Shown here piece after piece: positions 27,681 through 44,055 of a stretch of 64,000 bases of DNA (within the stretch, counting starts at the first letter, position 1; each line of letters opens with the position of its first letter). Under the pieces are notes generated by a model that was not told the origin of the DNA, did no database searches, and saw only the letters and a program-made list of their open reading frames with translations. The stretch is taken from contig NZ_CP152049.1 of assembly GCF_038630985.1 (NCBI RefSeq), positions 4,173,501 to 4,237,500 on the forward strand, read 5' to 3'. This DNA is from Paenibacillus sp. FSL H8-0548. Its GTDB lineage: Bacteria; Bacillota; Bacilli; Paenibacillales; Paenibacillaceae. Made by a program: the position numbers and the translations under genes.

Positions 27681-27865
27681 CGTGGGTATGCAGGTTTGAT
27701 GATCTGCTGCAACTTCGGATAGTGTTGTTCCGCTGGACGAAGTTTTGCTAGCTGCTGCTTAGCATGGTAGATATCATCAAGTGATGCGAATGGATCATGA
27801 TAAATGATTGTCAGCAGCTCCGTCTCATTCGCTTTGGTAATGTCTGGCTGCTTCACTTTTCCCAC
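27677..27865 (-). CDS. Small hypothetical protein
   Basis: Protein of 62 residues, basic and helical, no recognised family. It overlaps the preceding gene by 13 bases and lies in the early operon. Confidence 0.55.
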   Translation of the reverse strand: MGKVKQPDITKANETELLTIIYHDPFASLDDIYHAKQQLAKLRPAEQHYPKLQQIIKPAYPR

Positions 27866-28287
27866 CGACCTATACGGGTGAGATCTTCCGCGAATTTATC
27901 AGTATCGAATTCAAAGGTTGCCGAATGTCGAATCCATAAGCTATCCCGCTTTAAAAAATTCCCTTTCAATCCGAAGACAGCGCCTTTGTAATAGAGGTAT
28001 TTACTATCCCAACTTCCCTCGATATCCAGTACGGGCGATTTCATTTTGAAATGGTCCCGAATCCTAGTAATTAGTTTGTTCCAATCTTTTTCCGCGAAAG
28101 AAATTGAACCGTTTTTATACCAATCCAATGCAGAGTAATCGGTACTGTCATCAGGATCGCGAGATTGCCGTCCGTGTTGCCTCTCGATATCTTGTCCAAG
28201 CGTTAACAACGTTTCATGAGTTATCTCCACATGAAACGCGTATCCGTGTTTATCCGGAAGTGGGTTATATCTTTGCTTTTCTTTCAA
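27853..28287 (-). CDS. Hypothetical phage protein behind a LexA box
   Basis: Protein of 144 residues, not recognised. It contains SWDSKYLYYKGAVFGLKGNF and a charged N-terminus. TTG start with GGAGGG upstream. A consensus LexA box at 28306-28319 lies 19 bases before the start in a 74-base gap, so it may have its own damage-inducible promoter. Confidence 0.6.
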   Translation of the reverse strand: MKEKQRYNPLPDKHGYAFHVEITHETLLTLGQDIERQHGRQSRDPDDSTDYSALDWYKNGSISFAEKDWNKLITRIRDHFKMKSPVLDIEGSWDSKYLYYKGAVFGLKGNFLKRDSLWIRHSATFEFDTDKFAEDLTRIGRWEK

Positions 28288-28305: not shown

Positions 28306-28319
28306 GAAACATATGTTCG
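28306..28319 (-). promoter_or_regulatory. LexA (DinR) box, perfect consensus
   Basis: Minus-strand CGAACATATGTTTC fits the Bacillus SOS consensus CGAACRNRYGTTYC at all positions. It sits in the gap before the gene starting at 28287. Confidence 0.75.
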
Positions 28320-28361: not shown

Positions 28362-28931
28362 TTATTCCGTTTTTGCGAGCATGGCACTTACAACCTCAAT
28401 TTGATATGGGTAAGTGTCTACAGGAGGACTGAGTTCTCGCATGTGGTATAAATTCATTGCGATTCGAGCCATGATATACGCGTCAACAATGTTGTCATTC
28501 TTGTGCTTGTATCCGAAGTGTTGAAACACTGCTTCCAATACCACGGCTTTGCCCTCTTTGCCGCTTAACCTCTCTTTCTTGCCGGCTTCGCCCTTCCACC
28601 CAGTTACGCCGACATACTTTTTAACCGATGCAGGCATGAGTTTGTTGAATTTCAATTTACGGCGATGTACCATGCTCCGCAGCCCGCCGTGTATCATCCC
28701 AGTTGTAATGCCTCTTTGGGTACCTGGAGCAGCATCCTCGATAACGACCTCATCGCCAGGCTGCAGCAACACATAAAGCTGATCTTGTAAGCTAACAAGC
28801 TGCTCGATGGATATACCGCCTTTCTCAACCTTTCCAGCACCCTTCAATTCAACCTCGACCAACACCTCGCCAAGCTCATTCAAAGCAACGAATCCAGTTT
28901 TAGTCGCCGGATCGACTCCCACGAATCGCAT
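28362..28931 (-). CDS. RuvC-like Holliday junction resolvase
   Basis: Protein of 189 residues with an RNase H-like fold: D7 ([10 protein letters not shown]), E65 (VVIEDAAPG), and D146/D150 ([10 protein letters not shown]) as metal ligands. Phage resolvases of this type debranch DNA before packaging. It overlaps the LexA-domain gene upstream by 32 bases. Confidence 0.78.
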
Positions 28932-29334
28932 TGCTCTCGACCTCCCTCTTACCTGTTATTTGCAAGCTGCGTGGCCTACCGCCTACTGCGTTGCGTTTGA
29001 TGTAACCTTTCTTCTCCAGTCGTTCCAGATGGCCGTGAACAGTCGATCCAGATGCAAGTCCCACACCCTCGGCAATCTCCCGCACAGATGGTGGATAACC
29101 ATTAGCACCGACAAATGCTACGATAAAATCAAATGTCACCGCTTGGCGCTTATTTATCGGTTCTAGCCCTGATGCAAGCTGCGGAGTTCGCGCTGCATAG
29201 ATTTCAAGCGCCCGCCGCATCGTGCTGATGTTGATCGGCTTGCTGGATGCTAGACACACCTGCACTTGAGCGATAACCTGCTCGTCCGTCATTACGAGGG
29301 AGTCGAGCTGCTTTGAGAATTCGGAATTAGCCAT
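28900..29334 (-). CDS. LexA-type DNA-binding domain protein
   Basis: Protein of 144 residues. The C-terminal half matches the LexA N-terminal winged helix: [50 protein letters not shown]. It has no S24 peptidase domain, so it cannot self-cleave. It might compete at LexA-like sites or control phage genes. ATG 29334 follows GGAGG by nine bases. Confidence 0.75.
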
Positions 29335-35816: not shown

Positions 35817-36196
35817 TAGTTCTCATCCTCCAAATTTAGAATCTTCATTACATATGTCAGGGCATCTCTTGCGCCTAAATCGTAAGATGAATTTAGTGTG
35901 AAATTTTCTGCAAAGCCCAAAATTTTCACTTTATCGTTAACTGATACATGTGTAGGGGCGAATTCAGCAGCCGTCCTCATTGGCCTAGGTGCATCTAATA
36001 ACTTGACGTAGATTAACTCATCAATCGCATTTCGGATGCTCAAAGCTTCCGAAACATTCAACGTTTTAGGGTTGAAATCGTGAAACGGAAATGCAAGCCT
36101 TATAAATAGCTGATTGCCTATGGTGTCCGATTGAAGAATGAGACAATCTTCTGTCCGAAAGGGCTCAACTGATCCGATAACTACTGTTTTAATCAC
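35816..36196 (-). CDS. Hypothetical phage protein
   Basis: Protein of 126 residues between the SbcC-like and Bet genes, coupled to both by overlapping start and stop codons (GTGA, TAATG). No family recognised. Its position suggests a part in recombination. Confidence 0.6.
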   Translation of the reverse strand: MIKTVVIGSVEPFRTEDCLILQSDTIGNQLFIRLAFPFHDFNPKTLNVSEALSIRNAIDELIYVKLLDAPRPMRTAAEFAPTHVSVNDKVKILGFAENFTLNSSYDLGARDALTYVMKILNLEDEN

Positions 36197-37737
36197 ACCT
36201 TCACCCCATCCACTTCGATTTGCAAATCTTGATCGTGAACAGCCCGACCTGTAATCACCTGGTCATATGCTGCGATAGGCCCTGTATACTCTCCGATGCC
36301 ATCGATAAACACCGGCGTTATGAGGTCCGACTGCTTGAATAGGACCTCTGTCAGCTCCAATCCCGCGCCGATCTTCTCCCCTGCGGAAAGGGTAATATAA
36401 TCCTTGCCGTCCTTCTGAACGCTGAAATCGGGTTCATACTCTTTACGAGAAGCTACATATTTAAACAGACGAATCGAAAGGGTTGTAAACTTGGATTGAA
36501 TCTCAGAAGCTTGCAGTTCAGCTTCCTTTGCCCGAAATGCTTTGATAGCGTCTATGATAAATGTAGATTCTCGAAGGCTGGCAAGTGTTGATTCCTCAGT
36601 TGCTTCGGCTGCCGTAACCTCTGCTGCTAGACGCGTGCGCTCTTGGTGTTCACGAATTTTGCGTTGCAGTTCTTCGTACTTCTCATTGATTTCTCGTACC
36701 TTCTCCTGCTGCACAGAAACATCAATCCATTCAGCTTCATTGAAGGCCATGCGTGCCTCATTTCGCTTTTCTTTTAGGGCGGCGAACGTTACTCGATATA
36801 ATTCAATTCTCCGGTCCTTATCAGCTTTAACAGCCTCGACCGACTCATCTCGTAAAGACTGCTCACATTTAGGGCAAGTATCCTTAATAGCCTCGTCTCT
36901 GAGCTTAGGCCATGCATCAACCGTATCCTTTACTTGCTGTTCGAGTTGTTGCAGCCTGACCTCTAATGCTTTGTGGTGGGAATTGATTGAGGACGCATCT
37001 ACAATAACTTTACTTTCTCGTGCGACATCCTCTTTCAATGCAGCGGCTTTTGATTCCATTTCAGAAATATCAGAAGGGGCTTCTGTAAGCCGACCGAGCA
37101 TTTCATTAAGCTTCTTAACAGCACCTACCGCCTCAGTGTGTGCCTTGTCCAGCTTTGGCTTTGCATCCTTATGTTTTGTTTCCAAATCGTTAACGGAGTT
37201 CTTCTTCGTGAGTTCAGCCAGCTTATCAGCTTGTAACTTGTCCATGCCTTGAAATACTGTTTTATTTAGCGGCGGAGTCACGCCCTGCATCAACAATGCG
37301 CGCTGCTTGGCCCAATGTAAGCCAAAGAAGAATGCCGGGAAGTATAAGGACATGAACTCCTCTTGCGAGAAGAGGGACGCGACTGCGGCTTCATATTCCT
37401 TCGCGGGCCGCGGTATGTCATTTACATAGAAGCTGTTTGTCTTGCCTGCTATCTCCCGAGCAAACTTGTATTCCGTGCCGTCGACCGAAATCAATATAGA
37501 AGCGAAAACCCGATCGTATTTATAATTGCTTGGACGTGGACTGTTTTTGGCTGAAGTGTAATCAGCGCCGAGCAGATCCTTGCCCCAAAACACCCATATA
37601 GGAGCGGTACCGATGGAGGTCTTACCTTCACCATTACGACCGGATAATGCCGTTACGTTGCCGTAGTTGACCGTCTTGGAACGCAGTCCGGCGAAGTTCT
37701 CGACTGCTGTTTCGATGAAGCGAACTCTCTTTGCCAA
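36193..37737 (-). CDS. SbcC/Rad50-like ATPase with zinc hook
   Basis: Protein of 514 residues. Walker A GRNGEGKT (33-40), a long coiled coil, a CPKC zinc hook (C288, C291), a second coiled coil, and a C-terminal signature TLSAGEKIGAGLELT with Walker B PVFIDG. It is a half-size SbcC. No SbcD nuclease follows; the nearby MBL enzyme or exonuclease may be its nuclease partner. TTG start after GGGAGG. Confidence 0.85.
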   Translation of the reverse strand: MAKRVRFIETAVENFAGLRSKTVNYGNVTALSGRNGEGKTSIGTAPIWVFWGKDLLGADYTSAKNSPRPSNYKYDRVFASILISVDGTEYKFAREIAGKTNSFYVNDIPRPAKEYEAAVASLFSQEEFMSLYFPAFFFGLHWAKQRALLMQGVTPPLNKTVFQGMDKLQADKLAELTKKNSVNDLETKHKDAKPKLDKAHTEAVGAVKKLNEMLGRLTEAPSDISEMESKAAALKEDVARESKVIVDASSINSHHKALEVRLQQLEQQVKDTVDAWPKLRDEAIKDTCPKCEQSLRDESVEAVKADKDRRIELYRVTFAALKEKRNEARMAFNEAEWIDVSVQQEKVREINEKYEELQRKIREHQERTRLAAEVTAAEATEESTLASLRESTFIIDAIKAFRAKEAELQASEIQSKFTTLSIRLFKYVASRKEYEPDFSVQKDGKDYITLSAGEKIGAGLELTEVLFKQSDLITPVFIDGIGEYTGPIAAYDQVITGRAVHDQDLQIEVDGVKV

Positions 37738-37743
37738 AGAAAT

Positions 37744-37935
37744 CTACCTCCCATTCGTGAAACGTTGAAATTTAATGCCGTAGTACATCCGAGCCTTGCG
37801 CTCGCGGCGGCTTAAGATGCTGCCATAAACCTTTTTGATTTGTTCAGAGACGTATGAGACGCCGATCGTACCAGGCTTATAAGGGCTCTTTTTGCCTCTC
37901 GAGCGAAGCTTGCGTTGTAATGGATTATGATTCAT
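37744..37935 (-). CDS. Small basic phage protein
   Basis: Protein of 63 residues, very basic (LQRKLRSRGKKSPYK, SRRERKARMYYG). It may bind nucleic acid. ATG follows GGAGG by nine bases. No family recognised. Confidence 0.55.
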   Translation of the reverse strand: MNHNPLQRKLRSRGKKSPYKPGTIGVSYVSEQIKKVYGSILSRRERKARMYYGIKFQRFTNGR

Positions 37936-37966
37936 GGATAATTACCTCCAATTAAATGATTTGTGG

Positions 37967-38034
37967 TACACTAGCTTTGAATAATTTGCTTGTGGCTCTA
38001 ACGCGACGGCCATCGCTGTTAGGGCTTTTCCTTT
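37967..38034 (+). ncRNA. Candidate short antisense RNA / plus-strand hairpin
   Basis: An extended -10-like TGGTACACT (37964-37972) is followed 15-20 bases later by a strong stem GGCTCTAAC / GTTAGGGCT with inner CGA/TCG and then TTTTCC. This could make a short plus-strand RNA opposite the early operon. No -35 is evident. Alternatively the hairpin serves minus-strand transcript folding. Confidence 0.25.
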
Positions 38035-38299
38035 AGAATGGTAATTCGTCTGAGACCGTGTAATTAGGGGTTTCGTCATCATCGACTACGATTGTCTTGT
38101 AGGTTACTACGACTGGCATGTACTCAACATGTACAATCGCTTCGCCATCTTCGTCTAGAATGTGATATTCAGAGCCGTGCCTACATACATATTTTTCAAT
38201 TCGATTTACGACCCGCTCATCAACTTCATCGCCTACTGTATAGGTCTGCTGCTGGTTTTGGCCAACTGTGATTGATTGGATAACTGTTTCTCTTTGCAC
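38033..38299 (-). CDS. Hypothetical phage protein
   Basis: Protein of 88 residues, acidic and beta-rich by look, ending in YTVSDELPF. GTG 38299 is nine bases from AAAGGAGG; an earlier GTG overlaps that site. No family recognised. Confidence 0.55.
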   Translation of the reverse strand: MQRETVIQSITVGQNQQQTYTVGDEVDERVVNRIEKYVCRHGSEYHILDEDGEAIVHVEYMPVVVTYKTIVVDDDETPNYTVSDELPF

Positions 38300-38377
38300 T
38301 GTTTTCACCTCCTTTAAAGCTCAAAATGCCGTTTTTGGCAAAAAATAATAAGGGTACGTGATTTCGCGTTGGCGGAA

Positions 38378-38518
38378 TCAAGCCCAATCCCTCCAATACC
38401 CCTGCTGCCAGCCATCAATAAACTGCTCCAGCGTAATTCGATACAGGTGCCAAATCTTTTGACTAACAAACCAATCAGCTAGATAATCAAGCAGCTCGTC
38501 CGATATGCGGTTAGACAT
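38378..38518 (-). CDS. Small hypothetical protein
   Basis: A frame of 46 codons rich in Trp and Tyr (SDELLDYLADWFVSQKIWHL, QFIDGWQQGYWRDWA). Its ATG overlaps the stop of the gene before. No family recognised. Confidence 0.5.
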   Translation of the reverse strand: MSNRISDELLDYLADWFVSQKIWHLYRITLEQFIDGWQQGYWRDWA

Positions 38519-38678
38519 AGCGACTCATTGCAGCCTGCGCCACAACCATCTTGTTTAACTGGATAAGTGACTGCTTACGTACAAAGGCAGCGATCTTAGG
38601 GCGACCAGCGTCTGTTAAACGCTTCTCGAATTTTGCTAAGACAAGAAAGTTTTCGCGGTGCTTATTTAGCTTGTTCAT
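38511..38678 (-). CDS. Small basic hypothetical protein
   Basis: A frame of 55 codons (MNKLNKHRENFLVLAKFEKR). AGAGGA lies about nine bases before ATG 38678; an ATG at 38687 is too close to it. Likely helical and nucleic-acid binding by charge only. Confidence 0.5.
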   Translation of the reverse strand: MNKLNKHRENFLVLAKFEKRLTDAGRPKIAAFVRKQSLIQLNKMVVAQAAMSRYV

Positions 38679-38695
38679 AGAGCTCATCCTCTCGA

Positions 38696-38860
38696 TTAGA
38701 TTAGCCCCACATCGCCACGTGTGCGGTGTCCGAGTGGAAGCCGACGATTAACGTACCGTGTAGCTGAGCGATGCTGCGATGGGCGCGTGGTGTCTTTTGG
38801 GACCATGTACTCGTAATATTCGGCAGGCCATGCGCCACCTACTTTAGAGATGTAGTACAT
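38696..38860 (-). CDS. Small hypothetical protein
   Basis: Protein of 54 residues starting at ATG 38860, eight bases after GGAGGTG. It overlaps the end of the previous gene by 22 bases. Rich in Arg and Tyr; function unknown. Confidence 0.5.
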   Translation of the reverse strand: MYYISKVGGAWPAEYYEYMVPKDTTRPSQHRSATRYVNRRLPLGHRTRGDVGLI

Positions 38861-39054
38861 GCCGGAGCACCTCCGTGTGGCTGAGCCTTCATCTCTGCCA
38901 TGAGCGTCTGCATTGCCGTATCGAAAGCAGGCCAATCTCCCATCGGTGCGACTTCGATAGACGCAGGTCCGAGATTGATTAACGCCTCTCCAAAAGTTTT
39001 GGTATCGCGCTTTGCTGCGGCAATCATCTTTGCAGCAATTTCAGCTGTTGTCAT
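38839..39054 (-). CDS. Small hypothetical protein
   Basis: Protein of 71 residues (MTTAEIAAKMIAAAKRDTKT) with AAAGGAG before the ATG. Helical; function unknown. It follows the antirepressor gene. Confidence 0.6.
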   Translation of the reverse strand: MTTAEIAAKMIAAAKRDTKTFGEALINLGPASIEVAPMGDWPAFDTAMQTLMAEMKAQPHGGAPACTTSLK

Positions 39055-39071
39055 AGTGCTGCTCCTTTCTT

Positions 39072-39872
39072 CTAATAAAGTGGAAGAGAGTTTTCCTTTT
39101 CCTTGGCAAGCAGTCCAACCAAAATTTCATTGAACTTGTCCAGAACACCCATGCGCACCATTACATCAATGCCGTTCACCTTCTGTTTGAGAGTGCTAAC
39201 CGCGTAAAATTTACCCGTCTTATCGAAGTAAGCATCATTGATACGGACACGTTCATTTTCAACTCGCTGCCGAACGTCGATGCCGTGCTTAGCCTGCATG
39301 ATGTCGTAAATGCGGTTATACACTTCGTTATGGCCTAACCGAGTCCAGCGGACGTATTCGTCAACTCGCTTGACAACTGCTGTGTGATTAGGTGCTGCGG
39401 TTAAGTTGGTGGTCAATGTATCGACACGGGATTTAACTGCTTCAAGCTCCTTCCTATCCTCTGCTTGCTCAAGTTGCGTTCTAGCAACGCCGTCGAATAT
39501 GGTTTTGAACATCTGCATTTCAGGGCTGAGTAGAGATGTATTGATGGTTTGCTGTTTATATCGTTTTTCAATATCGATGAAGTATTTACGAGCTTTGCTG
39601 CCCTGCTCGTTGTTCTCAACCATACAGAGTTCCTTAGCCATATCGAGCTTTAAAACATAATCAATCGATTTGCCACCGCTTTCTAAAATTTTAGAAACCG
39701 TTGCGTAATCATCGTTTTCAGCGAATCCATATTTAGTGATTCGGTTTTTTATCCAATCAGCGAATTTAGAACTGACATCCAAAAACTCATGAAGCTCGCG
39801 ACCGTCAACAACCTTCTCGCCTGCATCAGTTTCATATATAGGCAGCAATTCATTTACGATTAACTTCTTCAT
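39072..39872 (-). CDS. Phage antirepressor (AntA + ORF6C-like)
   Basis: Protein of 266 residues. The N-terminal AntA domain reads VVDGRELHEFLDVSSKFADW and MAKELCMVENNEQGSKARKY; the C-terminal part resembles ORF6C or KilA-C domains. Antirepressors bind and inactivate phage repressors. A LexA box at 39937-39950 lies 65 bases upstream, so DNA damage would raise its synthesis. ATG 39872 follows GGGAG by six bases. Confidence 0.85.
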   Translation of the reverse strand: MKKLIVNELLPIYETDAGEKVVDGRELHEFLDVSSKFADWIKNRITKYGFAENDDYATVSKILESGGKSIDYVLKLDMAKELCMVENNEQGSKARKYFIDIEKRYKQQTINTSLLSPEMQMFKTIFDGVARTQLEQAEDRKELEAVKSRVDTLTTNLTAAPNHTAVVKRVDEYVRWTRLGHNEVYNRIYDIMQAKHGIDVRQRVENERVRINDAYFDKTGKFYAVSTLKQKVNGIDVMVRMGVLDKFNEILVGLLAKEKENSLPLY

Positions 39873-39936
39873 TTTCATCTCCCTTTCGTGTAGTGGTGAT
39901 ATTACTTGTAACATCACTAACCTAATAAATGTAAAC

Positions 39937-39950
39937 AGAACACACGTTCC
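39937..39950 (-). promoter_or_regulatory. LexA (DinR) box before the antirepressor
   Basis: AGAACACACGTTCC matches CGAACRNRYGTTYC at 13 of 14 positions. It stands about 10 bases downstream of a perfect TATAAT (minus strand, 39960-39965), so bound LexA would cover the transcription start of the antirepressor. Confidence 0.7.
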
Positions 39951-39955
39951 GTTGC

Positions 39956-39970
39956 GCTAATTATATTAGC
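39956..39970. promoter_or_regulatory. Palindromic operator GCTAAT-TAT-ATTAGC
   Basis: Perfect six-base arms around TAT overlap the TATAAT of the antirepressor promoter. Nearby are other inverted pairs (GTGAT...ATCAC around 39888-39916; GATATAT...ATATCG around 39998-40013). A phage repressor or the Cro-like protein may bind here. Confidence 0.5.
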
Positions 39971-40025
39971 GGTGATATAATCCTATTTGTGAGATGGGAT
40001 ATATCGTAATATCGCTATTAAGCTA

Positions 40026-40259
40026 TTAGTTCGCAAGGTCTTGAAATACATCATCAACAGTTGTGTTGAAATATTTAGCAACTTTGAATGCGAATGTGAT
40101 CTCAGGATTAGATCGGCCGCTTTCTAGTTCACGAACAAAGCTTTCGGTAATATCAAGCACAATGGATAAAGAGCGTTGAGTTTGTCCATATTGTAAACGT
40201 AATTCCTTAAATCGATCACGTTTTATAATAGTACGAGGGGCGGCTTTTCTTCGAGCCAT
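40026..40259 (-). CDS. Cro-like XRE regulator
   Basis: Helix-turn-helix protein of 77 residues (RFKELRLQYGQTQRSLSIVL, DITESFVRELESGRSNPEI). Divergent from the CI-like gene and first in the early operon, the place of Cro. GGAGG site upstream of ATG. Confidence 0.82.
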   Translation of the reverse strand: MARRKAAPRTIIKRDRFKELRLQYGQTQRSLSIVLDITESFVRELESGRSNPEITFAFKVAKYFNTTVDDVFQDLAN

Positions 40260-40299
40260 ATAACATACCTCCTTTCGTATTTATTTGCATATTACTTGC

Positions 40300-40345
40300 G
40301 GACTTCTAAAGCACATCCATAATATAGCATGGACTTTTAAAGTCC
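40300..40345. promoter_or_regulatory. Repressor operators between cro and cI
   Basis: GGACTTTTAAAGTCC (40331-40345) is a perfect 15-bp palindrome. GGACTTCTAAAGCAC (40300-40314) is a degenerate copy 31 bp away, about three helical turns. A weaker third copy with TTCTAAA lies at 40376-40390 by the cI start. These are the likely CI/Cro operators. Confidence 0.75.
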
Positions 40346-40389
40346 GTCAATGGGTTTTCAAAATATATTTATTCGAGGTGTTCTAAATC

Positions 40390-40779
40390 ATGGCTGAGGA
40401 CAATAACATGAGTAAGTTGACCGGCGAGAGAATTCGTGCGTTACGCAATAAATCGGGGCTGTATCAAGCTGATCTAGCGGAGAAGCTGGGTGTCGTTCGC
40501 GAAAACGTATCTAAATACGAGCTCGGCAAGGTCACTCCTCCAAGCAACGTTCTTAATTCATTGGCTGATTTGCTGCATACTTCTACTGATTATTTGCTTG
40601 GTAAAACAGAAAACTCCACCCCTGTTGATCCAGAGATGGAGTTGAATAAAGATATCGAACTTTCAGACAGTCAATTATTAGAAAAATACAACTTCAAAGT
40701 TGATGGTCAATCCATTGATGAGGAAACGATTAAAAGGATTCTTGATTATCTACGAGCTGAGAAACGACTGAAAGGCTAG
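40390..40779 (+). CDS. CI-like repressor (XRE), no peptidase domain
   Basis: Protein of 129 residues: a helix-turn-helix (GERIRALRNKSGLYQADLAE, RENVSKYELGKVTPPS) and a short C-terminal part typical of ImmR-like repressors (LLEKYNFKVDGQSIDEETIK). There is no S24/LexA peptidase, so it cannot self-cleave on DNA damage. No ImmA-type protease gene is adjacent. GAGGTG lies nine bases upstream of the ATG. Confidence 0.82.
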   Translation: MAEDNNMSKLTGERIRALRNKSGLYQADLAEKLGVVRENVSKYELGKVTPPSNVLNSLADLLHTSTDYLLGKTENSTPVDPEMELNKDIELSDSQLLEKYNFKVDGQSIDEETIKRILDYLRAEKRLKG

Positions 40780-40794
40780 TCGTTTCTTTTTTTT
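40761..40794 (+). terminator. Terminator of the CI-like gene
   Basis: GAAACGACT (40761-40769) pairs with AGTCGTTTC (40778-40786), followed by eight T residues. It overlaps the end of the coding sequence. Confidence 0.93.
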
Positions 40795-40955
40795 GATTAA
40801 CTAAACCAAGGACAACGCTTCTATCGCCGATTCCTAATCGTTCAACATACAATATTAAATCAACTTCTACTTTGCCTATGACACTCACTCCCAGTTGGTG
40901 TATTATGGTTACATACTTATGTTACTACTATAACATCTTTTCCATTTTTATTCAC

Positions 40956-40969
40956 CGAACATACGTTCT
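40956..40969 (+). promoter_or_regulatory. LexA (DinR) box before an XRE gene
   Basis: CGAACATACGTTCT matches the Bacillus SOS consensus at 13 of 14 positions. It lies 40 bases upstream of the small XRE regulator at 41009. Confidence 0.7.
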
Positions 40970-41008
40970 TAATTTTACAAACAACTACCAACATGAAAGG
41001 AGATCAAA

Positions 41009-41245
41009 ATGGCGTTCCTTCTTGGGGAATGCCTGTTACTCGATGTGCTCAAAAAGAGAGGTATGAAACGAGCTGCTTTCGCAGGAAAGATGGATTGTTC
41101 ACGCGCCTTTGTGACTCAATTAATACGCGGTGAAGCTTATATGTCACTTGAATTCGCTATTAATGCAGCTCACCTCCTTGAGTGTCAAGTGACCGATTTT
41201 TATGTGCTAAATATCGGTAAGAGACGGAGTAACAGGAATGAGTAG
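41009..41245 (+). CDS. XRE-family regulator
   Basis: Protein of 78 residues with a helix-turn-helix (MKRAAFAGKMDCSRAFVTQL, IRGEAYMSLEFAINAAHLL). AAAGGAG site upstream. Its promoter region holds a LexA box and it follows the CI-like gene. It could be a second repressor or an SOS-made modulator; target unknown. A short hairpin GAGTAG/CTACTC follows the stop. Confidence 0.72.
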   Translation: MAFLLGECLLLDVLKKRGMKRAAFAGKMDCSRAFVTQLIRGEAYMSLEFAINAAHLLECQVTDFYVLNIGKRRSNRNE

Positions 41246-41272
41246 ATTTTCTACTCACCCTCGAGATTTTTG

Positions 41273-41287
41273 TTAAGTACTACTTAA
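41273..41287. promoter_or_regulatory. Palindrome TTAAGTA-C-TACTTAA
   Basis: Perfect seven-base arms around one base in the 130-bp gap between converging genes. Possible protein-binding site; role unknown. Confidence 0.4.
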
Positions 41288-41375
41288 CGAATGCCATCAT
41301 TGTATAATTATTTTTCGAGAATTGCTGTCGCTTAATGTCGAATAATAATTTGTAAAGATTGACAATAGAAGCTCC

Positions 41376-41975
41376 TTATTTAACAAACCTCTGAACCATC
41401 TCTTCTGCCCCACCTTGAAAAACTTTAAATGATCGCATCCCAACATCAAAACGTTGTGCCCCAACGATCCAAACATAAGGAAACACTTTCTTCAGCTGCG
41501 GCTGCCACTCTGCTTTTTCCCATTCGCCAGTCAGATAATGTTGTTCGTATCTATTCATTTTGTCGATGATCATCTTCTCTGTGAACGCACTGTTCTGGAT
41601 CTCAATATAAAACGGCGCCCCTTTCCATATAGCGAATGCATCAGGCTCTGGCAGTCCCTTCCCTCCTATCTTCGGTTCGACTTGAAAGATACGAGGCGCT
41701 TCGTGCCGGCGCAACTGCTTAAAGAAGTCGGCAATCGCTAAGAAGTGCCCTATCTTTTGTGAGTCCTTCTTAATGCTATGCTGCGGGAAGTATAAGTACT
41801 TACGACGTTCTTTCGACACAGTTACAAGCCCCTCCCTCCGTAACCGCAGCAACGTCTTATTAGCTTCCGTAATCGGATTTTTGACATGACCATAATGGAG
41901 CTCCGCTACATCGTCGCGCGTTAAGCAGCGGAACCTTTCAAGGTCAGCAACAATAGCTTTATCCCGCGCAATCAA
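41376..41975 (-). CDS. Replication-relaxation family protein
   Basis: Protein of 199 residues. The N-terminal winged helix (ADLERFRCLTRDDVAELHYG, TEANKTLLRLRREGLVTVSK) and central part (EPKIGGKGLPEPDAFAIWKG, with a PD-(D/E)xK-like look) fit the replication-relaxation family found on plasmids and phages. TTG start overlaps the FtsK-like stop. It forms a module with the FtsK-like gene. Confidence 0.75.
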   Translation of the reverse strand: MIARDKAIVADLERFRCLTRDDVAELHYGHVKNPITEANKTLLRLRREGLVTVSKERRKYLYFPQHSIKKDSQKIGHFLAIADFFKQLRRHEAPRIFQVEPKIGGKGLPEPDAFAIWKGAPFYIEIQNSAFTEKMIIDKMNRYEQHYLTGEWEKAEWQPQLKKVFPYVWIVGAQRFDVGMRSFKVFQGGAEEMVQRFVK

Positions 41976-43192
41976 AACGGTAGCACCTCCAATTCAAAAT
42001 CCTCATCATCTAGCCCTTGTGCGACCTCCTGTGACATTTCATCCTCTACCCTTTTGTATGGCTCCAACAATACTCTTGCCTGCTTTAAATCCAAATGTGG
42101 AGCCTGCACGAAGCGCAACCCATCGAGCTTATGAATCATCAAACCCTTTTGACTCTGCTTAATGTGAGCTGCTTCTCCGCTACCGAGTGTGATGCGGCTA
42201 TTTATTTCGTCAGCGTGTCGGAAAGCCATACGGACCGTAAGGTTATTTTTAAGCTTACCGTCAAGTACATCCGCATCCGGACGTTGCATGGACAAAATAA
42301 GAAACACGCCGAGAGCTCGACCTATGGCGCTTATCTCTTCGATTATCTCCATGCAGGCATGCTTCTGCAGCAAGCTCACTTCGTCGATGGCTACAACAAT
42401 ATAATTCGGTCGCAAGTTGTCAGGCAGATCAACCACATCCGCCAGCCCTTCACGATCCAATAAGCTGCCACGCTTCTGCATTTCCTTTCTAAGCTTAAGC
42501 AATATCCGGTGTAGGTTTGGTGCGTCGTTTACTATTTCATTAGCTATACCTCGAAACAAATGAAACTCCGAACGTTTAAGATCTCCCCCATAAAGTTCCA
42601 ACCGATCACCAGCCAATCGGATCAACGTTGCCAGGATAGAACGCAGCTCTACCGACTTGCCCGAACCCGTTTCGCCGGCTATGAGTAGATGCGGGTGCTC
42701 GGTCATGTCATAAGCAATCGGACCAGTGCGGCTGCGTCCCACATAGATCGGTAGTACCATTCCTTTGCATGCTGCAGCTGCTTCCTCGTCGTTGTAAGCA
42801 AATATCGATATGCCTTCATTGTATACATTTAGTGCAAATGTTTTAACGGTTCCGCTGAGCTCGATGTGCTCACCGAAAACTTGCTGGAACAACCAATCAT
42901 GCTCATAAACCTCTTTCGGATTCATCCCTGTTGGAACGGTGAACACCACTTGTTTATGATCCAGTGACACACTCACCCGCTGTATTGTCGGGTGCAGAAT
43001 GACGTCCTTAGCATTCTTGCCCCAACCACGCTTAACCTTTTTGCCCAGCTCCCCAGCTCGAAAAGCTTTCATGATGTTTCGCCTCAGCTCCGTTGTGGGC
43101 ATGGTTGCGTATGTCGTCCAAGCTACGTAAGTGCTTGCCACAATCCCTGCTACCTTGGCCGCAACTACTGCACTAGTGCCAATGAACATCAT
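41972..43192 (-). CDS. FtsK/SpoIIIE-like DNA translocase
   Basis: Protein of 406 residues. N-terminal hydrophobic helix (about 5-27), Walker A GETGSGKS (173-180), Walker B IVVAIDE (D270, E271) and the family segment SMQRPDADVLDGKLKNNLTV. Similar genes are in Bacillus phages and in conjugative elements. It may pump plasmid-like phage DNA or aid segregation. ATG after GGGGGA. Confidence 0.88.
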   Translation of the reverse strand: MMFIGTSAVVAAKVAGIVASTYVAWTTYATMPTTELRRNIMKAFRAGELGKKVKRGWGKNAKDVILHPTIQRVSVSLDHKQVVFTVPTGMNPKEVYEHDWLFQQVFGEHIELSGTVKTFALNVYNEGISIFAYNDEEAAAACKGMVLPIYVGRSRTGPIAYDMTEHPHLLIAGETGSGKSVELRSILATLIRLAGDRLELYGGDLKRSEFHLFRGIANEIVNDAPNLHRILLKLRKEMQKRGSLLDREGLADVVDLPDNLRPNYIVVAIDEVSLLQKHACMEIIEEISAIGRALGVFLILSMQRPDADVLDGKLKNNLTVRMAFRHADEINSRITLGSGEAAHIKQSQKGLMIHKLDGLRFVQAPHLDLKQARVLLEPYKRVEDEMSQEVAQGLDDEDFELEVLPF

Positions 43193-43220
43193 ATACCAAT
43201 CCCCCTAATCTACTGCTGTA

Positions 43221-43272
43221 ATTAATGCGGTTGATACTCTAGTAATTAGTGCATTAGCATAACCGCATTAAT
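43221..43272. repeat. 12-bp perfect inverted repeat upstream of ftsK-like gene
   Basis: ATTAATGCGGTT (43221-43232) and AACCGCATTAAT (43261-43272) flank 28 bases that hold more TAATTA/GCATTA elements. It lies about 30 bases before the FtsK-like gene. It may be an operator for the module, or a cis-site for replication-relaxation or transfer. No T run, so not a terminator. Confidence 0.6.
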
Positions 43273-43329
43273 ACAAGCGATAATGCCGAAATAACGCGAA
43301 AGTTTGTTTTTGTTTCGAAGCACGGAAAA

Positions 43330-43473
43330 TTAGGAGAAGGGGAAAAGGATGAAGTGAGAAAGCGGGCGGACGACAGTGTGCCCAAAAATCCAACAAATAT
43401 ACGCGCCGCCTAAAAAAGAAATTATTACCAATCCCCAACCGATGACATCTGATAATTTACCCGTGCGAGTCAT
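43330..43473 (-). CDS. Small membrane protein
   Basis: A frame of 47 codons starting MTRTGKLSDVIGWGLVIISF with one strong hydrophobic helix. ATG overlaps the previous stop as ATGA. Part of the FtsK-like operon; function unknown. Confidence 0.6.
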   Translation of the reverse strand: MTRTGKLSDVIGWGLVIISFLGGAYICWIFGHTVVRPLSHFILFPFS

Positions 43474-43673
43474 AGCACTACACCGAATATATGAGCAGCA
43501 TGACGCAGCACACCCCGCAACAAATCCAAAACAATGTAAGCACATGCCACATGAGCGACGACCTTGACGAAAACCACTTTCCCACCATGCCCACGCTCCT
43601 CCATAAACCGACTTGCCATATCAGACGCAATCGCAATTCCTAATATTTTCATCGCTGGCACCAAAATGACCAT
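43470..43673 (-). CDS. Small membrane protein
   Basis: Protein of 67 residues with two hydrophobic stretches (MVILVPAMKILGIAIASDMA and VAHVACAYIVLDLLRGVL). First gene of the FtsK-like operon and coupled to the next small membrane gene. Function unknown. Confidence 0.6.
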   Translation of the reverse strand: MVILVPAMKILGIAIASDMASRFMEERGHGGKVVFVKVVAHVACAYIVLDLLRGVLRHAAHIFGVVL

Positions 43674-43833
43674 TGAGCACCCACTCTCCCTCGTGTCGAA
43701 AACTGCAAATTAAGTAGTGCAGTAATCGGTTATGAGCTATCCTATGGCGCATAGCTTGTCAAAAATGTCTACGGTTTTGGAATAAATTTTCATAGAGTTG
43801 TCCACACTTCTAATATAAAGGAGTGTGAACATA

Positions 43834-44055
43834 ATGGGACTAGGTAAACCGAGAAGTCTGTTGGGGAAGTTTATTGATAAGATCGGGTTGAAACAGCGGG
43901 ACTTAGAGGAAGCTGCGAACTTGAGCCGGAACGAGGTGATAAAGTTATGCGACGGGAAAACGTATAGGAATCCTTATCCTGAGACGAAACAAAAGGTTAT
44001 AAGCGCATTACGCAGGAAAGGTCACGACGTTCGGGCTGATGATTTTTGGGAATGA
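43834..44055 (+). CDS. Helix-turn-helix protein
   Basis: Protein of 73 residues: LGKFIDKIGLKQRDLEEAAN, LSRNEVIKLCDGKTYRNPYP is an XRE-like fold. Divergent from the FtsK-like operon, so a likely regulator of it. AAAGGAG lies ten bases before ATG 43834. The 160-bp divergent gap holds an AGCTAT...ATAGCT inverted pair. Confidence 0.7.
   Translation: MGLGKPRSLLGKFIDKIGLKQRDLEEAANLSRNEVIKLCDGKTYRNPYPETKQKVISALRRKGHDVRADDFWE

What the first reader, a model, noticed from the sequence alone, without database searches (positions are those of the whole stretch)
39872..40969. LexA-controlled antirepressor as the likely prophage induction switch
The CI-like repressor (129 residues) has no S24 peptidase domain and no ImmA-like protease gene beside it, so SOS induction must act otherwise. 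A near-consensus LexA box (AGAACACACGTTCC, 39937-39950) overlaps the presumed transcription start of the AntA-type antirepressor, just downstream of a perfect TATAAT. Another box (CGAACATACGTTCT, 40956-40969) precedes a second XRE regulator. This suggests that host LexA itself holds the antirepressor silent. Such logic is known in Salmonella Gifsy-type phages; I do not know a described case in this phage group.
Basis: partly seen in the sequence, partly recalled or inferred. Interest (0 to 1): 0.85.

Follow-up and report, generated by a model that had tools for sequence, protein, structure and literature searches.

The report
LexA-controlled micro-antirepressor beside phage repressor
Beside the repressor gene of this bacterial prophage, a binding site for the host's DNA-damage regulator sits between a small regulator gene and a tiny overlooked gene that is matched to the repressor's tail, which probably is the switch that wakes the prophage after DNA damage.

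Summary
Against a matrix from 18 lexA promoters, box 1 (antA) scores 14.0 bits (0.59 expected per 64 kb) and is not conserved (0 of the 80 best viral antA loci; 0 of 4 genus relatives). Box 2 scores 18.5 bits (0.016 expected) and is conserved: exact in 16 of 34 loci, window included (0.02 expected), and in 25 of 29 loci of a second XRE clade. Box 2 lies between XRE78 and an unannotated divergent micro-ORF (40730-40879, minus) with an extended -10 (33 of 34) and a coding signature. Micro-ORF type follows the tail type of the adjacent, non-cleavable CI (Mantel r 0.78; partial 0.64). Three loci with an S24-type CI lack box and micro-ORF. Most likely LexA represses a tail-specific micro-antirepressor and XRE78; SOS releases both and induces the prophage. 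In 18 of 34 loci the best-placed start codon is AUU/AUC/AUA. LexA binding, expression and antirepression are inferred. AntA may be a secondary target.

The parts
40956..40969 (.). box 2, CGAACATACGTTCT, conserved LexA box between XRE78 and the micro-ORF
   Evidence: 18.5 bits; exact box in this place in 16 of 34 loci, window included, and in 25 of 29 loci of a second XRE clade
40730..40879 (-). micro-ORF (49 codons, proposed ATA start; alternative GTG at 40888 overlaps the Shine-Dalgarno), proposed CI-tail antirepressor
   Evidence: family coding signature. The window's own copy is among the weakest in similarity (nearest-neighbour score 0.24)
40888..40892 (-). Shine-Dalgarno GGGAG of the micro-ORF
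   Evidence: sequence
40927..40935 (-). extended -10 TGTTATAGT of the leftward (micro-ORF) promoter; box 2 would then cover about -36 to -49
   Evidence: motif in 33 of 34 loci, 1.6 expected from mononucleotide shuffles
40612..40643 (-). terminator-like hairpin that would end the leftward transcript inside cI (antisense)
   Evidence: similar in 25 of 34 loci (no shuffled control)
41009..41245 (+). XRE78, small HTH regulator (PF13443), divergent partner of the micro-ORF
40390..40779 (+). CI-like repressor, 129 aa, XRE HTH plus type B tail, no S24
40759..40788 (+). terminator-like hairpin of cI
40026..40259 (-). Cro-like XRE, 77 aa, first gene of the early operon
39072..39872 (-). AntA-type antirepressor (second early gene); the searches used a query that began at 39881
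   Evidence: PF08346 E 6.4e-27
39937..39950 (.). box 1, AGAACACACGTTCC, possible weak LexA box or part of a terminator-like hairpin
   Evidence: 14.0 bits; hairpin 39934-39953; not conserved
39960..39965 (-). TATAAT upstream of box 1, no -35 match

Best explanation
Box 2 is a LexA operator in a divergent promoter. In the lysogen, host LexA silences XRE78 (rightward) and a micro-ORF of about 49 codons (leftward). The CI-like repressor has no self-cleaving domain; its short C-terminal tail is the point of attack instead. After DNA damage LexA self-cleaves, the micro-protein is made, binds the tail of its own CI (probably the dimerisation element) and takes CI off the DNA; the cro/antA early operon then fires. 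XRE78 probably tunes the micro-ORF promoter, as the partner factor does in TF-smORF modules. Shown here: the sites, their conservation, a genuine leftward gene with promoter motif and coding signature, and covariation of micro-protein and CI tail. Inferred: LexA binding, SOS expression, CI-tail binding, initiation at AUU/AUC/AUA, the role of XRE78.
For: Exact GAACN4GTTC 33-58 bp before the XRE start in 16 of 34 loci, window included (0.02 expected, at most 1 in 300 shuffles), and in 25 of 29 loci of a second XRE clade (two of the 25, L266 and L282, were known beforehand from L054 and L123, so 23 of 27 are new). 18 of 18 relatives and the host carry an exact box at lexA. Micro-ORF: extended -10 in 33 of 34 (1.6 expected); the true frame has no stops and mean BLOSUM62 1.97 against 0.52 with 14% and 19% stops in the other frames; pN/pS 0.44. 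Micro type follows tail type: Mantel r 0.78, partial 0.64 given HTH and XRE78, micro against HTH given tail 0.07; nearest neighbour shares tail type in 28 of 33 (7 expected). No CI of the 34 matches a model of the S24 region (Pfam on 5 of them); the three loci with an S24-type CI have no box and no direct repeat within 400 bp, and their divergent gene is a free-standing S24 domain. One clear micro/tail similarity, L292 (z 5.8).
Against: No binding, expression or induction data. In 15 of 34 loci the site is a direct repeat GAACN6-9GAAC rather than a LexA palindrome, and 3 of 34 have neither. Tail and micro-ORF are neighbours and overlap, so linkage explains part of the covariation; tail and HTH also correlate (r 0.65), and micro against XRE78 given tail is 0.16, p 0.04. 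Five of 33 nearest neighbours have another tail type: three of type D go to A, and the two F loci do not find each other. General tail mimicry is not supported (HHalign E 0.035, probability 1.5%; own tail ranks at 0.48 against 0.5 by chance). The extended -10 is found in only 14 of 29 loci of the second clade. The window's own micro-ORF has an ATA start and weak similarity to its relatives. The protein database gave no relative for the two micro-proteins searched, 2 of 34, at limited sensitivity.
Confidence: 0.7

Rival explanations
1. One reading: LexA at box 1 silences antA, and AntA is the main antirepressor that inactivates CI after damage.
For: Box and TATAAT are real; AntA has the antirepressor domain; only 0.0013 such sites expected in the cro-antA gap.
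Against: 0.59 expected per 64 kb; no exact box at antA in the 80 viral loci examined or in four genus relatives; no -35 and a hairpin reading; antA also lies downstream of cro, so it is probably under CI as well (inference).
Confidence: 0.12
2. The leftward transcript works as antisense RNA against the 3' end of cI rather than as a protein.
For: The micro-ORF overlaps cI in 34 of 34 loci and the transcript would end inside cI (minus-strand hairpin in 25 of 34); 18 of 34 copies have a near-cognate codon at the start.
Against: Coding signature in the part that does not overlap cI, no stops in frame; covariation with the CI tail at protein level in the non-overlapping part.
Confidence: 0.1
3. XRE78 is itself the SOS-induced antirepressor or CI-competing repressor, and the micro-ORF is secondary.
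For: XRE78 is well conserved (10 invariant columns in 24 sequences), and LexA boxes also precede a second XRE clade.
Against: XRE78 is also present where CI is S24-type and no box exists; it follows the CI tail less than the micro-ORF does (micro against tail 0.78, tail against XRE78 0.32).
Confidence: 0.12
4. The boxes are bound by the phage's own LexA-like DNA-binding-domain protein (28900-29331), not by host LexA, as an activator site.
For: The prophage encodes a LexA DNA-binding domain without S24, like GIL01 gp6 (PMC6182141, abstract and section 17 read); G005 and G012 carry one about 13 kb from XRE78.
Against: 13 of the 18 genomes searched show no second match above 30 bits, and 7 of those 13 have the exact box; the boxes match host lexA promoters.
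Confidence: 0.07

Closest known systems
Gifsy antirepressors GfoA/GftA/GfhA (Lemire 2011, PMC3121763; abstract and passages read)
   Same: Non-cleaved repressor inactivated by a small protein whose gene LexA controls.
   Different: There the antirepressor gene lies outside the immunity region; here it is beside cI, divergent from an XRE gene and tied to the CI tail type. No sequence relation was tested.
TF-smORF modules (Silpe 2023, PMC10432266; abstract and passages read)
   Same: A transcription factor gene (XRE in some) divergent from a small ORF whose product inactivates its own cI.
   Different: Those modules are SOS-independent and were sought beside autoproteolytic cI; phages with non-proteolytic cI were set aside. 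Here a LexA box sits in the middle and cI has no S24.
GIL01 LexA/gp7/gp6 (PMC4551915 search listing only; PMC6182141 abstract and section 17)
   Same: Host LexA used directly by a Firmicute phage; a truncated LexA homologue is present in both.
   Different: GIL01 has no dedicated repressor; this prophage has a CI.
ICEBs1 ImmR/ImmA (recalled; the ImmA paper was seen only in a reference list)
   Same: Small XRE repressor without S24.
   Different: No ImmA-type (M78) match in the window or near it.

Membership tests
Gram-positive LexA (DinR) operator | Match to the motif of lexA promoters of the same bacterial family | tested here: met
   box 2 18.5 bits, box 1 14.0 bits, matrix from 18 lexA promoters
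Gram-positive LexA (DinR) operator | Conserved position before the same gene | tested here: met
   met for box 2: 16 of 34 and 25 of 29; not met for box 1: 0 of 80 and 0 of 4
Gram-positive LexA (DinR) operator | Bound by LexA, released after damage | not testable with these tools
   needs footprint and transcription data
Gifsy-type LexA-controlled antirepressor | Repressor lacks self-cleavage domain | tested here: met
   no S24 in the window CI; no match to the local S24 model among the 34 CIs
Gifsy-type LexA-controlled antirepressor | Small ORF under a LexA box, outside the immunity region | tested here: not met
   box and small ORF present, but beside cI
Gifsy-type LexA-controlled antirepressor | Small protein binds and inactivates repressor | not testable with these tools
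   only covariation with the CI tail
TF-smORF module | TF gene divergent from a small ORF next to cI | tested here: met
   34 of the 40 loci assembled; further loci, read by eye
TF-smORF module | SOS-independent, autoproteolytic cI | tested here: not met
   LexA box present, S24 absent
TF-smORF module | TF activates the smORF; smORF inactivates cI | not testable with these tools
   none
ImmR/ImmA | M78 protease beside the repressor | tested here: not met
AntA/AntB antirepressor | PF08346 domain | tested here: met
   E 6.4e-27

The most novel reading that the evidence does not exclude
Paenibacillaceae prophages carry an exchangeable cassette, a CI tail plus its micro-antirepressor, that is swapped between different CI DNA-binding domains and different XRE partners. 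It is wired to SOS by a LexA box only where CI cannot cleave itself, and the micro-antirepressor is routinely started from AUU, AUC or AUA, which would hold it at a low threshold level and hides it from gene finders.
Probability: 0.5. Interest if true: 0.82.

Novelty: new variant of a known kind. Interest (0 to 1): 0.72.

Why it matters
It would explain how Firmicute prophages with small, non-cleavable repressors and no ImmA answer DNA damage, a case that the TF-smORF study (PMC10432266, passages read) set aside. It gives a directly testable rule: the repressor's tail, not its DNA-binding domain, decides which micro-antirepressor works. Near-cognate start codons would also mean that a class of switch genes is missing from annotation.

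Tried and rejected
AntA as a conserved LexA target: 0 of the 80 viral loci kept, out of 148 relatives (three loci had only 218-255 bp of upstream DNA). General mimicry of the CI tail by the micro-protein: HHalign not significant; mean own-tail score 2.6 SD above permuted tails and 9 of 60 at shuffle p<=0.05, with L292 the clearest case. A correlation of micro-protein and tail between the two clades (r 0.32, permuted maximum 0.23) is inflated by L123, which belongs to the second clade. Micro-protein relatives in the protein database: none for the two queries tried. att sites: no shared word of 15 or more between the flanks searched. Phage records: DNA comparison of 36000-43900 gave 11 records with about 1% of the query each; by protein only Psychrobacillus PVJ1 has a distant XRE78, with no exact box between its CI and that gene. 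A first translation of host LexA was out of frame and was redone.

Rows dropped: 40 loci were assembled; six are not among the 34: L146, L159, L215 (S24 type, reported apart), L129 (duplicate of L155), L219 and L229 (no convincing CI or micro-ORF; no exact box). L223 was removed as a copy of L147. The 34 were chosen for having a micro-ORF, so its presence in 34 of 34 is no finding. Of the 30 loci fetched, L162-L166 (E 1.1e-9 or worse) were not used; none has an exact box, L166 a one-mismatch one. Weaker hits were not fetched. The S24 model was built from L146, L159 and L215 themselves, so for L215 it is no independent test; Pfam confirmed S24 in the CIs of L146 and L159. In the second clade L284 was a near-duplicate, L296 and L297 were not used, and its CIs were not scanned for S24. 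In one search micro-ORF frames of the second clade were chosen by eye, and L282, L291, L293 were left out. L123 and L282 are one locus counted in both sets. The terminator count has no shuffled control. The pN/pS value uses only pairs above 45% identity.

Full report
What was claimed and what is there. Both boxes, the TATAAT and the genes are at the stated places. The window lies at 4173501-4237500 of a single 7.35-Mb chromosome; named relatives of XRE78 are mostly in Paenibacillus. The CI-like protein has no S24 domain, and the two M78 matches of the genome lie about 0.8 and 0.25 Mb from the window.

Strength of the boxes. A LexA matrix was made from 91 sites in the lexA promoters of 18 family genomes; each of the 18, and the host's own lexA, has at least one exact GAACN4GTTC. 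Host recA has a one-mismatch site. Box 2 scores 18.5 bits (0.016 such sites expected per 64 kb), box 1 14.0 bits (0.59 expected; 0.0013 in the 145-bp cro-antA gap). Box 1 also folds as a short terminator-like hairpin.

Conservation. AntA relatives: no exact box within up to 350 bp upstream in the 80 viral loci examined, the best 80 of 148, and none at antA in four genus relatives, two of which match only the C-terminal half. XRE78 relatives were found in 78 of 394 family genomes at E<=1e-3 and in viral contigs. In the 34 distinct loci with the full module (window included), an exact LexA palindrome lies within 90 bp of the XRE start in 16 (0.02 expected; at most 1 in 300 dinucleotide shuffles), and a direct repeat GAACN6-9GAAC in 22 (0.48 expected), 15 of them without a palindrome; 3 have neither. 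A second XRE clade was searched after the pattern had been seen: exact box in 25 of 29 loci at -45 to -57, and an ORF in the place of cI 157-255 bp upstream in 29 of 29. Two of these 25 (L266, L282) were known beforehand through L054 and L123, so 23 of 27 are new. The extended -10 described below was found in 14 of the 29.

The overlooked gene. Between the end of cI and the box, on the opposite strand, 34 of the 40 loci assembled have a micro-ORF of 42-60 codons whose end overlaps cI; the other six are three S24-type loci, one duplicate and two unresolved. Its leftward extended -10 TGNTATNNT is present in 33 of 34 (1.6 expected from mononucleotide shuffles), and a minus-strand terminator-like hairpin follows its stop, inside cI, in 25 of 34 (no control for the hairpins). 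The part that does not overlap cI shows protein-level conservation: no stops and mean BLOSUM62 1.97 in frame, 0.52 with 19% and 14% stops in the other frames; pooled pN/pS 0.44 for pairs above 45% identity. In the window it is 40730-40879, minus.

Start codons. ATG 12, ATT 8, ATA 6, ATC 4, GTG 2, TTG 1, CTG 1 of 34. In 15 of the 18 ATT/ATA/ATC cases an in-frame stop (often the TGA of AGGAGTGATGA) lies at most three codons upstream; in 8 of the 18 no ATG/GTG/TTG follows in the next 22 codons. The window copy is one of the three exceptions: a GTG at 40888 is in frame but overlaps the Shine-Dalgarno; L142 and L128 have an upstream GTG or TTG. Frameshifting from the ATG inside TGATGAC, or a later start in some loci, is not excluded.

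Link to the repressor. CI proteins fall into tail types A-F by their last 48 residues (L123 stands alone), with HTH types partly shuffled between them. Similarity of micro-proteins (non-overlapping part) correlates with that of tails (Mantel r 0.78; partial 0.64 given HTH and XRE78; p 0.0005 with 2000 permutations), but hardly with HTH once the tail is accounted for (0.07, p 0.05); with XRE78 given tail it is 0.16 (p 0.04), and tail and HTH correlate too (0.65). The nearest neighbour by micro-protein has the same tail type in 28 of 33 (7 expected, maximum 19); the five misses are three type D loci that go to A and the two F loci. For example L148 has the HTH type of L139/L140/L158 (tail B) but tail and micro-protein of type A, and L142 has the HTH type of L141 but tail and micro-protein of type E. 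Three loci (L146, L159, L215) have an S24-type CI; they have no box and no direct repeat within 400 bp and no micro-ORF was seen; their divergent gene is a free-standing S24 domain of 91 aa (PF00717 E 2.4e-8, 1.6e-11, 7.3e-9), similar to the CI domain itself (BLASTP E 3e-7 for L146). None of the 34 CIs beside a micro-ORF matches an S24 model (model built from those three; Pfam run on five of the 34). So the gene divergent from XRE goes with the C-terminal part of its CI, and a LexA-type box is seen only where CI cannot cleave itself. Direct mimicry of the tail is clear in single cases (L292, z 5.8) but not in general.

Mechanism. Shown: box, its conservation, a genuine leftward gene, covariation with the CI tail, complementarity with S24 (three loci). 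Inferred: LexA binding, damage induction, CI-tail binding, near-cognate initiation, XRE78 as tuning factor. AntA may be an additional, phage-specific LexA target.

Literature. Gifsy antirepressors (PMC3121763, abstract and passages) and TF-smORF modules (PMC10432266, abstract and passages; non-proteolytic cI set aside there) are the closest. A Paenibacillus larvae phage paper (PMC4168068, passages) names antirepressors and a LexA-like product but, in the passages seen, no LexA control. Searches for LexA with antirepressor in Gram-positives, Bacillus, Firmicutes or Paenibacillus, for smORF antirepressors under LexA, and for AUU or near-cognate starts with antirepressors listed no title or abstract that describes this module; four of these lists were cut (15 of 36, 15 of 503, 12 of 88, 12 of 29), and subscription papers are not covered.

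Noticed in passing
window 28900-29331, minus: LexA DNA-binding domain without S24 (PF01726, E 8.6e-21), like GIL01 gp6; the genomes G005 and G012 carry one about 13 kb from their XRE78.
   Followed up: partly
window 28306-28319: GAAACATATGTTCG, 16.8 bits, stronger than box 1, just upstream of the minus-strand ORF 27853-28287.
   Followed up: no
L039:8781-8794: CAAACATACGTTCT, 17.2 bits, upstream of an Acb2/Tad1 anti-CBASS-type gene (PF24729, E 2.2e-22), to the right of the window.
   Followed up: no
L127, L128, L141, L150-L153, L156-L158, L214, L216, L224, L232, L233: Direct repeats GAACN6-9GAAC at the box-2 position instead of the LexA palindrome; which protein reads them is unknown.
   Followed up: partly
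window 39896-39917: Near-perfect palindrome GTGATATTACTTGTAACATCAC between box 1 and antA, possibly an operator of another regulator.
   Followed up: no
L146, L159, L215: Free-standing S24-domain gene divergent from XRE78 beside an S24-type CI.
   Followed up: partly
L199: A contig named Pseudoxanthomonas sp. J31 carries a Paenibacillus-type module; contamination or a wrong label is likely.
   Followed up: no
L265:3872: Psychrobacillus phage PVJ1 has an exact LexA-type box before its integrase and an unannotated distant XRE78.
   Followed up: partly
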